The notes below the pieces were generated by a model that was not told the origin of the DNA, did no database searches, and worked only from the letters and a program-made list of their open reading frames with translations. A DNA stretch of 64,000 bases from Nitrososphaerota archaeon (GTDB lineage Archaea > Thermoproteota > Nitrososphaeria_A > Caldarchaeales > Calditenuaceae): NCBI GenBank assembly GCA_009889515.1, contig WUQR01000139.1:744001-808000 (forward strand). Reading direction: 5' to 3'. Every line of letters begins with the position of its first letter. Position 1 is the first letter of the stretch. Positions 60,357-63,209 of the stretch are shown piece by piece. Made by a program: the position numbers and the translations under genes.

Positions 60357-60938
60357 ATGTTTAAATCCCCAAAAATAGAGACGGCCGGTAGGGACTTGTT
60401 AAGGGGCGTTAGAGTTGCTATACTAGCGCTCTCACTATTAATGGCAGTATCAGCTGGAGCTTTAGTTTACGTTAATTCTTTTGCATTTCCTGAGGGGCCG
60501 GCTAGAGCCATATGTACGCCCACCAGAGTGGGAGGTTATCTTTTTGAGGCCTACGTAATCCCTGCCACACCTAGAGTCGGCGAGGAGTTCCAAATAACAG
60601 CCTCGATACAGGGGGCCTCACTCGGCTCGACCCCAATCAATTTCACGCTGATATTATTAAAGCCGGGGCGTCTCTCGATAGTTGGGGGCCCTGAGGCGAC
60701 CCACCTCGGCATCAAGACTTGGTCCTACAGAATTGATGAAGCCGGGGTCTATGACGTATATTTCATAATCTCGGGACCGGAGGGCTCTGGAAGAGTTGAA
60801 GGCAGCCTCCAAATAGTATCGGAGAACGAGGCTGAAACCTACTCACTCATCAGAATCCTATCCTACACTTCACTATGGATAGGCATCCCCACACTCATCG
60901 CCATAATCGTCTACTCAAAAATGAGAGGAGGTGAATAA
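60357..60938 (+). CDS. Membrane protein with external beta-domain, unknown function
   Basis: A 193-residue protein. Hydrophobic segments at about 17-42 and 168-186 flank a beta-rich domain (P-R-V-G-E-E-F-Q-I-T-A-S, W-S-Y-R-I-D-E-A-G-V-Y-D-V-Y-F) that resembles an immunoglobulin-like/cupredoxin-like fold; one cysteine (Cys52) and no obvious copper or heme motif. It is divergent from the Rieske gene and might be an accessory to that complex, by position only. ATG start; overlaps the next gene by 8 bases. Confidence 0.6.
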   Translation: MFKSPKIETAGRDLLRGVRVAILALSLLMAVSAGALVYVNSFAFPEGPARAICTPTRVGGYLFEAYVIPATPRVGEEFQITASIQGASLGSTPINFTLILLKPGRLSIVGGPEATHLGIKTWSYRIDEAGVYDVYFIISGPEGSGRVEGSLQIVSENEAETYSLIRILSYTSLWIGIPTLIAIIVYSKMRGGE

Positions 60939-61596
60939 CAGGATAATGGATACGCCGCATACTCCAAGCTTCTATAATGAAAAGGCATGGAAAGTAATCG
61001 CCGTCGTTATGTGTGGGGGCAGGGGAGCGAGAATGGGCGGGCGAGAAAAGCCCCTAGTCAAGGTCTTAGGAAAGCCACTCATCAGCTATACCCTAGGCGC
61101 CATACAGGGCTGCAGCGCCATAAAAAGCGTCGACTTCGTGACGAGCATACACACTCCCCAGACCACAAAATACCTCCAAGAGATGGGGTACGAGCCGTAT
61201 ATAGCCCAGGGCGCAGGCTTCCTAAACGACCTCTCAGAATACCTAACACCGCGGCAAAAAGCCACCTATCTGATAGTATCCTGCGACATCCCAACCCTGA
61301 AGCCACACCACATCCAAACTGCATTAGACATTTCGCAACAACATGAGGTTAAGTACATTGTCTATGTATTGCCCTATGACAGTGTTAAGGGTCTGTCTAG
61401 AGTCCCGACAATCATCCGACACGGTGGTGTGGAATATCAGCCAGCCGGCCTTAGGATCTTCAGGAAAGATAGCGAGGGTCCGCCAGACTTCTCAACCCCC
61501 AATTTAATATCACTGGAGTTTAGAGAGTTGGGAATAAATATAAACACGTTAGAAGACATCCATATCGCTGAGGACTTTCTAAAAAAAGATGGATAA
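60931..61596 (+). CDS. cobY: Nucleotidyltransferase, CobY-like (adenosylcobinamide-phosphate guanylyltransferase)
   Basis: A 221-residue nucleotidyltransferase. The sugar-nucleotide-type loop V-V-M-C-G-G-R-G-A-R-M-G-G-R-E-K-P-L and V-S-C-D-I-P near residue 115 fit the archaeal CobY group, which activates adenosylcobinamide phosphate with GTP in B12 synthesis. MobA or other MobA-like transferases are alternatives. A B12 role would fit the B12-dependent reductase at 33.7-36.4 kb. GTG start at 60931, or ATG at 60946. Confidence 0.68.
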   Translation: MNNRIMDTPHTPSFYNEKAWKVIAVVMCGGRGARMGGREKPLVKVLGKPLISYTLGAIQGCSAIKSVDFVTSIHTPQTTKYLQEMGYEPYIAQGAGFLNDLSEYLTPRQKATYLIVSCDIPTLKPHHIQTALDISQQHEVKYIVYVLPYDSVKGLSRVPTIIRHGGVEYQPAGLRIFRKDSEGPPDFSTPNLISLEFRELGININTLEDIHIAEDFLKKDG

Positions 61597-61641: not shown

Positions 61642-62274
61642 ATGGAACTTAGTACCGAGCAATTACTTAAGATGATCGAGGGTAGGAGTTCTTCAAAACT
61701 GTTAACCCCAGGGGAAGTGGAGTTCTCAAAGATAATTAGGGCGCTAGAGACCGCAATCTCGGCTCCGAGCGCGCACAACTCCCAGCCATGGCGTGTCGTG
61801 GTTATCGATGATAGAGTCGTTTTGGAGAGGCTGCTTGAAGAGATGGCTGCTGAGTGGAGGCGCGACCTGAAGGGGGACGGCCTCCCTGACTGGAAGGTGG
61901 AGATAATAATAGAGGAGTCGAAGAAGAGGACCTTGAGGGCCTCTGTGGTGATAGTTGTCTGCCTAACGATGGAAGAGATGGACAAGTACCCTGACGAGAG
62001 AAGGCAGAGGTGCGAATATGTAATGGCAGTCCAGTCCATAGGCGCCTTCATCGAGAACCTACTACTTGCACTCCACATCCAAGGCCTAGGCGCCTGCTGG
62101 CGCTGCGGCCCCCTCTTCGCACCAGAAGCCGTACGCAGGGTCCTAAAACTACCCCCACACCTAGAACCCCAAGCCCTAATCGAGATAGCACACCCAGGAG
62201 GCACACGCCCCAAAACCCGGAAACCAGTTAAGGAGATAGCTTACAGAAACATGTGGGGTGAGCCGATATCATAA
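61642..62274 (+). CDS. Nitroreductase-family FMN protein, probably F420 biosynthesis (FbiB C-terminal-like)
   Basis: A 210-residue nitroreductase-fold protein: A-P-S-A-H-N-S-Q-P-W-R-V-V-V, S-I-G-A-F-I-E-N-L-L-L-A-L-H-I-Q-G-L-G-A-C-W in two parts, and A-L-I-E-I-A-H-P-G. The A-P-S-A-H-N-x-Q-P-W pattern resembles the C-terminal domain of mycobacterial FbiB, which reduces dehydro-F420-0. The gene is joined to cofD by a 4-base overlap (ATAA). ATG start. Other nitroreductase roles cannot be excluded. Confidence 0.8.
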   Translation: MELSTEQLLKMIEGRSSSKLLTPGEVEFSKIIRALETAISAPSAHNSQPWRVVVIDDRVVLERLLEEMAAEWRRDLKGDGLPDWKVEIIIEESKKRTLRASVVIVVCLTMEEMDKYPDERRQRCEYVMAVQSIGAFIENLLLALHIQGLGACWRCGPLFAPEAVRRVLKLPPHLEPQALIEIAHPGGTRPKTRKPVKEIAYRNMWGEPIS

Positions 62275-63209
62275 CAATACTTTCTGGCGGTGTTGGCGGT
62301 GCGAGGTTCGCCGCCGGAGTCCTCGACGAGACACCGGAAAGCGAGGAGGTCGTAGTTATAGTCAATACTGCTGACGATGAGGAGTTCTACGGCCTCCATG
62401 TCTCCCCAGACATAGACACCGTCCTCTACACTCTGGCGGGGGTCGGGGACTGGGAGCGTGGATGGGGGATAAGAAACGATACTTTCAACTGCAACGAAAT
62501 GCTAGGAAAGCTCGGCATAGAAAACTGGTTCAAGATAGGCGACAAAGACCTAGCATTAAACCTGATAAGGACCAAGATGTTAAAAGAAGGTTTCACACTC
62601 TCGCAGGCAACTGAAAGGCTTAGAAAAGCCCTAGGGGTGAGGGCGAGAATATTGCCGATGACTAACGACCGTGTGAGGACCATGGTCGAGACTGAGCTAG
62701 GCGTGCTGCGATTCCAAGAATACTTCGTCAAACATGGATACAGTGTAGATGTGAGGCGTATATGGTTTGAGGGCATTGAGAAGGCTGAGCCCCTCCATGA
62801 GGCAATCCAAGCAGTCCTCGAGTCGGACATAATAGCTATCGCCCCCAGCAACCCGATCGTGAGTATAGGACCTATACTGGGCCTCAAAGGCTTCAGAGAC
62901 GCGCTAAAAAGAAGCCCGGCGAAGAAAATAGCAGTCAGCCCCATAATCGGCGGCAAGACAATAAAGGGCCCAGCCGATAAGATGCTCCAAATGATCGGAG
63001 TCGAGCCCACAGCATACGGTGTCTACTCACTCTACAGAGACATAATAGACGTAATGGTAATTGACGTAGAAGACGCTGAACTGGCAAGTAAAATCGAGGC
63101 GGAGGGTAGACAATGCCTAGTCCTAGACACACGCATGAATAGCCGCGGAGACGCGCGTAGACTCGCATCACAGATACTCAAGAGTATAGCAAAGCAGCGG
63201 ACTGCTTAG
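62271..63209 (+). CDS. cofD: 2-Phospho-L-lactate transferase (F420 biosynthesis), non-standard start
   Basis: A 312-residue protein if read from ATA at 62271: I-T-I-L-S-G-G-V-G-G-A-R-F-A-A-G, then I-V-N-T-A-D-D-E-E-F-Y-G-L, S-P-D-I-D-T-V-L-Y-T-L-A-G and A-P-S-N-P-I-V-S-I-G-P-I, all CofD hallmarks. The frame has no ATG, GTG or TTG between an in-frame stop (62259-62261) and ATG 62499, and starting at 62499 would delete the whole GTP/phosphate site. ATA 62271 overlaps the upstream TAA as ATAA, like an ATGA overlap with one changed base. ATC 62268 is the other candidate. Confidence 0.85.
   Translation: MTILSGGVGGARFAAGVLDETPESEEVVVIVNTADDEEFYGLHVSPDIDTVLYTLAGVGDWERGWGIRNDTFNCNEMLGKLGIENWFKIGDKDLALNLIRTKMLKEGFTLSQATERLRKALGVRARILPMTNDRVRTMVETELGVLRFQEYFVKHGYSVDVRRIWFEGIEKAEPLHEAIQAVLESDIIAIAPSNPIVSIGPILGLKGFRDALKRSPAKKIAVSPIIGGKTIKGPADKMLQMIGVEPTAYGVYSLYRDIIDVMVIDVEDAELASKIEAEGRQCLVLDTRMNSRGDARRLASQILKSIAKQRTA

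What the first reader, a model, noticed from the sequence alone, without database searches (positions are those of the whole stretch)
62259..62285. cofD lacks any standard start codon and seems to use ATA in an ATAA stop-start overlap
The CofD frame is complete and strongly conserved from I-T-I-L-S-G-G onward, but the region after the in-frame TGA at 62259 has only GCC, GAT, ATC and ATA codons before it. ATA at 62271 overlaps the nitroreductase TAA by the geometry of a normal ATGA overlap, so a single G-to-A change would have produced both codons. Either AUA initiation is used here, coupled to termination, or there is a base error.
Basis: partly seen in the sequence, partly recalled or inferred. 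Interest (0 to 1): 0.72.

Follow-up and report, generated by a model that had tools for sequence, protein, structure and literature searches.

The report
cofD gene starting at AUC codon
A gene for making the coenzyme F420 in a heat-loving archaeon has no normal start codon, the same gap recurs in all six sequenced species of its genus, and protein synthesis most likely begins at an AUC (or AUU) codon placed by the ribosome-binding signal, which would be unusual but not unprecedented.

Summary
cofD (2-phospho-L-lactate transferase, TIGR01819) has no in-frame ATG/GTG/TTG between the TGA at 62259 and 62499, 77 codons into conserved protein. It is not a base error: all six species of the genus (Caldarchaeales, family Calditenuaceae, separate assemblies) lack a standard start and keep the in-frame TGA. 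The position matching the ATG/GTG/TTG start of other archaea is ATC at 62268 (ATT in the closest relative), not ATA at 62271. ATC lies 6 nt after GGTGA, the spacing this genome prefers for ordinary starts; ATA lies at 9. Relatives carry NTGATAA, where the nitroreductase TGA overlaps the cofD start and a TAA follows. Changing a shared base removed start and stop together; TAA now ends the nitroreductase. ACG at the same site in four other species points to repeated losses. Best reading: Shine-Dalgarno-placed, termination-coupled initiation at a near-cognate codon. AUA initiation is not excluded. Conserved AUU/AUA starts are known in bacteria, so this is a variant of a known kind. Following the lead turned up something stranger: archaeal trpE appears to need a +1 frameshift at a tryptophan codon.

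The parts
60931..61596 (+). NTP-transferase (MobA/CobY-like, TIGR00454-type) gene upstream in the same cluster
   Evidence: PF12804, TIGR00454 below its curated cut-off
61642..62274 (+). nitroreductase-family gene, related to the FbiB C-terminal domain; ends at TAA 62272-62274
   Evidence: PF00881 above cut-off; TIGR03553 below cut-off
62257..62261 (+). GGTGA, Shine-Dalgarno-like motif inside the nitroreductase gene; contains the in-frame TGA 62259-62261
   Evidence: sequence; preferred 6-nt spacing to NTG starts in this genome
62268..62270 (+). ATC, most likely start codon of cofD
   Evidence: homologous to ATG/GTG/TTG/ACG/ATT of relatives; spacing; invariant first base
62271..62273 (+).
   Evidence: homology and 9-nt spacing; not excluded
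62272..62274 (+). TAA, nitroreductase stop; the second stop of the ancestral NTGATAA
62268..63209 (+). cofD, 313 codons plus stop
   Evidence: TIGR01819 324.4 bits, cut-off 257.45; PF01933

Best explanation
cofD is an intact gene translated from a near-cognate start codon, AUC at 62268 (AUU in the nearest species). Ancestrally the nitroreductase and cofD overlapped as NTGATAA: the nitroreductase stopped at TGA, which shared bases with the cofD NTG start, with a second stop TAA 3 nt on. In the lineage of this genus the shared G became C or T. That one change destroyed the standard start and the TGA stop together, and the tandem TAA took over, lengthening the nitroreductase by one residue. Initiator Met-tRNA is then placed on AUC by GGUGA pairing with 16S rRNA at the preferred 6-nt spacing, and/or by ribosomes terminating at the UAA that begins 4 nt after the first base of AUC. 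Output is presumably low. Shown by sequence: no NTG start, conservation, homologous position, spacing, overlap geometry. Inferred: the direction of the mutation, initiation at AUC, use of Met, coupling, low output.
For: No NTG start in any of 6 congeners, with AT[C/T]-ATA and the in-frame TGA kept. ATG/GTG/TTG sits at exactly this codon in other genera and outside the order. GGTGA-to-NTG spacing in this genome peaks at 6 nt: 24 of 55 in-frame codons are NTG (0.44), against 0.07-0.22 at other spacings. Relatives keep NTGATAA, and every species with ATC/ATT/ACG has a nitroreductase that runs on to the TAA. The A at 62268 is a wobble base of a nitroreductase codon (ATA/CTA/TTA) yet identical in 6 of 6, as is the T of GGT; only 7 of 111 degenerate nitroreductase columns are identical. 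A is also the first base in the four ACG species. Non-NTG starts need 4 changes on the cofD tree, at least 3 by well-supported branches (L026, too short, left out). The protein scores as a true CofD, and cofE is present in the genome. Precedent: conserved AUU/AUA starts with extended SD in S. aureus give ~10-30% of AUG (PMC13009471).
Against: In all ten species with ATC, ATT or ACG the next codon is ATA overlapping the stop as ATAA, the -4 geometry of the commonest coupled overlap, so AUA could be the start. GGTGA encodes part of a conserved nitroreductase C-terminus (Trp-Gly-Glu), so it may be an SD by accident; two ACG species (L022, L024) lack it. ATT is only about 0.3% as efficient as ATG in E. 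coli (Hecht et al. as cited in PMC10666635), and Sulfolobus aIF1 discriminates against non-canonical starts (PMC6237735); aIF1 is present in this genome. No expression data.
Confidence: 0.6

Rival explanations
1. Translation starts at AUA 62271, in the -4 overlap AUAA, by termination-reinitiation.
For: ATA is invariant in the genus and follows every ATC/ATT/ACG in the order; ATAA copies NTGA geometry.
Against: Relatives with ATG-ATA or TTG-ATA start one codon earlier. GGTGA spacing would be 9, not 6. ATA is already explained by the TAA stop and the Met-Ile-Thr N-terminus. The first base of the preceding codon stays A at a free wobble site.
Confidence: 0.22
2. CofD is made as a nitroreductase-CofD fusion by -1 frameshifting near the end of the nitroreductase gene.
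For: The genes overlap in different frames, and a fusion would need no start codon.
Against: The shift would have to occur within 62262-62274, and the six species share no slippery sequence there. Relatives have a plain ATG.
Confidence: 0.05
3. The start lies upstream (GTG 62253) and the TGA at 62259 is read through.
For: GTG GGG TGA is conserved in the genus.
Against: It is the Trp-Gly-Glu codons of the nitroreductase in another frame. The codons after TGA vary freely between species (GCC GAT, GTC CAT, GAC CCT, ACC GTT).
Confidence: 0.03
4. Assembly error or decayed gene.
For: Single-genome evidence alone could not exclude it.
Against: Six assemblies agree. The frame is intact, and changes in the 67 N-terminal codons before the first NTG of either genome are mostly at third positions (7, 4, 38 at positions 1, 2, 3 against G005).
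Confidence: 0.02

Closest known systems
Conserved AUU/AUA start codons with extended SD: S. aureus cvfC1, ccpN, infC (PMC13009471)
   Same: Third-position near-cognate of AUG, conserved across related species, with a well-placed SD
   Different: Bacterial and shown by retapamulin profiling; there the SD is extended. Here: archaeal, inside an overlapping gene pair, inferred from sequence only, and AUC
E. coli infC / pcnB AUU starts (own knowledge; infC autocontrol is cited in PMC9845219)
   Same: Near-cognate start that limits expression
   Different: infC is autoregulated through IF3; no such link is known for CofD
Termination-reinitiation at NTGA overlaps in archaea (PMC6728339, PMC10666635)
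   Same: Upstream stop and cofD start overlap; SD motif inside the upstream gene
   Different: The start is not NTG, and the overlap is 7 nt if ATC is the start

Membership tests
CofD (2-phospho-L-lactate transferase) | score above the curated equivalog cut-off | tested here: met
   TIGR01819 324.4 bits, cut-off 257.45; PF01933
Near-cognate (non-NTG) start codon | no NTG codon in frame between the preceding stop and conserved protein | tested here: met
Near-cognate (non-NTG) start codon | codon one base from AUG at the homologous start position | tested here: met
   ATC/ATT in the genus, ACG in four other species
Near-cognate (non-NTG) start codon | initiation with Met shown by N-terminal peptide or profiling | not testable with these tools
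   no proteome or ribosome profile available
SD-led initiation | anti-SD-complementary motif at the genome's usual spacing | tested here: met
   GGTGA-N6; the 16S rRNA 3' end of this genome was not identified, so the anti-SD is assumed from the archaeal consensus (PMC7531240)
Termination-reinitiation coupling | stop and start overlap or lie within a few nt | tested here: met
Termination-reinitiation coupling | translation of cofD depends on translation of the nitroreductase | not testable with these tools
   needs a reporter assay
Programmed -1 frameshift (fusion) | shared slippery site between TGA 62259 and TAA 62274 | tested here: not met
   six species compared by eye, none shared

The most novel reading that the evidence does not exclude
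Ribosomes that terminate at the overlapping stop restart on whatever codon the SD puts in the P site, so the cofD start codon in this order has been largely freed from the NTG rule (ATC, ATT, ACG, CTG, TTG, GTG and ATG all occur at one site). That would be a natural archaeal example of position-defined rather than codon-defined initiation.
Probability: 0.25. Interest if true: 0.75.

Novelty: new variant of a known kind. Interest (0 to 1): 0.55.

Why it matters
Archaeal initiation factors are thought to reject non-NTG starts. A genus-wide AUC/AUU start, with ACG at the same site in relatives, is a natural test of how far SD pairing and termination coupling can replace codon identity. It also shows a simple route to such starts: at NTGATAA overlaps one mutation kills start and stop together, and the spare stop rescues the upstream gene. 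Gene finders that require NTG would truncate such proteins; here the first NTG in frame is 77 codons in.

Tried and rejected
Base error: rejected by six assemblies. Frameshift fusion: no shared slippery site. Loss of aIF1 as the cause of relaxed starts: aIF1 (PF01253) is present in this genome and in 39 of 41 searched. Altered initiator tRNA: three CAT tRNA genes, one of them (L162) with A1 and the GGG/CCC anticodon stem typical of archaeal initiators (typical features from my own knowledge). Genome-wide use of AUH starts: among 618 non-overlapping conserved ORFs compared with two congeners, cofD was the only clear ATH start found; the screen misses genes with an NTG soon after the true start. 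A first screen by ORF extension alone was swamped by antisense frames and needed an overlap and coding-signature filter. Hecht et al. 2017 is not in the paper library; its figure for ATT is cited through PMC10666635. CofH was not found in this genome, so how the lineage obtains the Fo part of F420 is open.

Full report
Observation. The cofD frame opens after TGA 62259-62261 with GCC GAT ATC ATA ACA ATA CTT TCT GGC GGT. The first ATG/GTG/TTG in frame is ATG 62499, far inside conserved protein. The protein scores as true 2-phospho-L-lactate transferase (TIGR01819, 324.4 bits, cut-off 257.45). The preceding gene is a nitroreductase related to the C-terminal domain of FbiB, whose TAA overlaps the cofD start region.

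Not an error. The window lies in a 2.1-Mb MAG (G000). Five other species of the genus, in separate assemblies, have the same arrangement: GTGGGGTGA-N6-AT[C/T]-ATA-AC. One is JANXDI010000029.1, Candidatus Calditenuaceae archaeon SKYB103, placing the genus in Caldarchaeales. The nearest relative (86% identical) has ATT instead of ATC. Of 80 cofD loci drawn from the public genome collection, only this genus, Benthortus lauensis (ACG) and a frameshifted MAG lack a standard start. All 39 loci from other orders in which the N-terminal motif was found have an in-frame NTG.

Which codon. Aligning the overlap across the order gives ATG, GTG, TTG or CTG at the position of 62268 in most genera, mostly followed by ATA or another codon that supplies the nitroreductase stop. 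In ATG-ATA and TTG-ATA species the nitroreductase stops at the TGA that overlaps this start (NTGA), with TAA as a tandem stop: NTGATAA. In the genus it reads AT[C/T]ATAA, and in four other species ACGATAA; in all ten the TGA is gone and the TAA ends the nitroreductase one residue later. So one substitution in the shared bases explains the loss of both signals. In codon-agnostic counts for this genome, GGTGA lies 6 nt before NTG codons far more often than at any other spacing (24/55, 0.44; others 0.07-0.22). GGTGA is 6 nt before ATC 62268 and 9 nt before ATA 62271.

Constraint. Across the six species only 7 of 111 degenerate nitroreductase codon columns have the same wobble base throughout. Among them are the T of GGTGA and the A of 62268, where the nitroreductase codon switches between ATA, CTA and TTA but keeps A. 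CTA and TTA together are a quarter of leucine codons here. This supports a functional A at 62268, though six related species are few independent trials. At species level GGTGA goes with ATC/ATT/ACG (8 of 10 against 3 of 16 others, Fisher p=0.004); relatedness is not corrected, so this is only suggestive of a strong SD compensating for a weak codon.

Recurrence. On the cofD tree the non-NTG label needs 4 changes, 3 forced by well-supported branches, so NTG was lost at this site repeatedly within one order. This is the most unusual feature, and it fits the idea that an SD inside the upstream gene and ribosomes terminating a few nt away relax the need for a good codon. Termination-reinitiation at such overlaps is established in Haloferax and E. 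coli (PMC6728339, PMC10666635). Conserved AUU and AUA starts with good SDs, giving about 10-30% of AUG, are established in S. aureus (PMC13009471). I found no report of a conserved AUC start in archaea in the papers searched, a limited library.

How common in this genome. Comparing 1.26 Mb of G000 with parts of two congeners left 618 non-overlapping conserved ORFs. Besides cofD, the genes with conserved protein upstream of every NTG were few. A large class II amidotransferase (GGGTGA-N6-CTG in 6 of 6 species) and an SdhA-like flavoprotein (CTG, but TTG in G005) look like CTG starts. A SRPBCC/CoxG-like gene shows CTG against TTG in G005. metS and trpE behave differently and are described below. 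cofD is the only ATH start seen.

Side finding. trpE has no NTG in its frame in 14 of 25 Caldarchaeales genomes, and in three Calditenuaceae genera a TAG sits one codon before an invariant TTT-GG. In all 25 a short out-of-frame ORF with a standard start ends in NTT-TGG over that site (for example ATG TGC CTT TGG CAG TAA; TTG AGT AGA GGG GGT TTA GTT TGG), so a +1 slip from CTT or GTT onto TTT at the tryptophan codon would enter trpE. TTT is 31% of Phe codons in this genome but invariant here. Other families of the phylum show the same layout (MRDNVW, MGDLVW, MRNCIW leaders). It resembles the RF2 CUU-UGA shift with a Trp codon in place of the stop (comparison from my own knowledge). A 2021 review lists only one programmed frameshift in archaea, a -1 case (PMC8211752). 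This is a lead, not a result, but it may be worth more than the finding I was given.

Verdict. Function as a start is inferred from sequence alone. It is a new variant of a known kind.

Noticed in passing
G000:C139:417420-418821 (+), loci L313-L337 and L377-L392: trpE seems to need a programmed +1 frameshift at a tryptophan codon: a short out-of-frame leader ORF (M..GG.[LV]W) ends in NTT-TGG over the invariant TTT-GG of the trpE frame in 25 of 25 Caldarchaeales genomes, and a similar layout occurs in other families of the phylum. 14 of 25 have no NTG start in the trpE frame. Possibly a tryptophan-sensing switch; untested experimentally.
   Followed up: partly
G000:C139:603049-603057 (-), loci L283-L312: Methionyl-tRNA synthetase has no NTG start in most Caldarchaeales: GGTG[A/G]-N6-CTC or CTA (never CTG or ATG), with TAA two codons before CTA in L310. 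Either an SD-placed CUC/CUA start or an early +1 shift from the GTG inside GGTGA (GTG-N7-CTM; genus g13 has GTG-N6-CTA in frame). Unexplained.
   Followed up: partly
G000:C139:~613679 (-), loci L338-L343: Large class II glutamine-amidotransferase-like gene with GGGTGA-N6-CTG GAG and no NTG before the conserved region in nearly all of 6 of 6 congeners, overlapping an upstream gene: probable CTG start.
   Followed up: partly
G000:C139:~618082 (+) and ORF 460188-460659 (-): SdhA-like flavoprotein and a SRPBCC/CoxG-like gene have CTG where congener G005 has TTG: probable CTG starts.
   Followed up: no
cofD loci L022, L024, L008, L026: ACG at the cofD start position in four species of other genera, two of which (L008 Benthortus lauensis, L026) also have an in-frame TGA three codons upstream and therefore no NTG start.
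   Followed up: yes
G000 (whole genome): cofE is present (C139:582106-582843 -) but no CofH-family match was found, so the source of the Fo deazaflavin is unclear.
   Followed up: no
L160:11247-11340 (+) and L166:6375-6468 (+): Two tRNA-like genes that ARAGORN cannot name (four-base anticodons cccg and atag), possibly intron-containing tRNAs.
   Followed up: no
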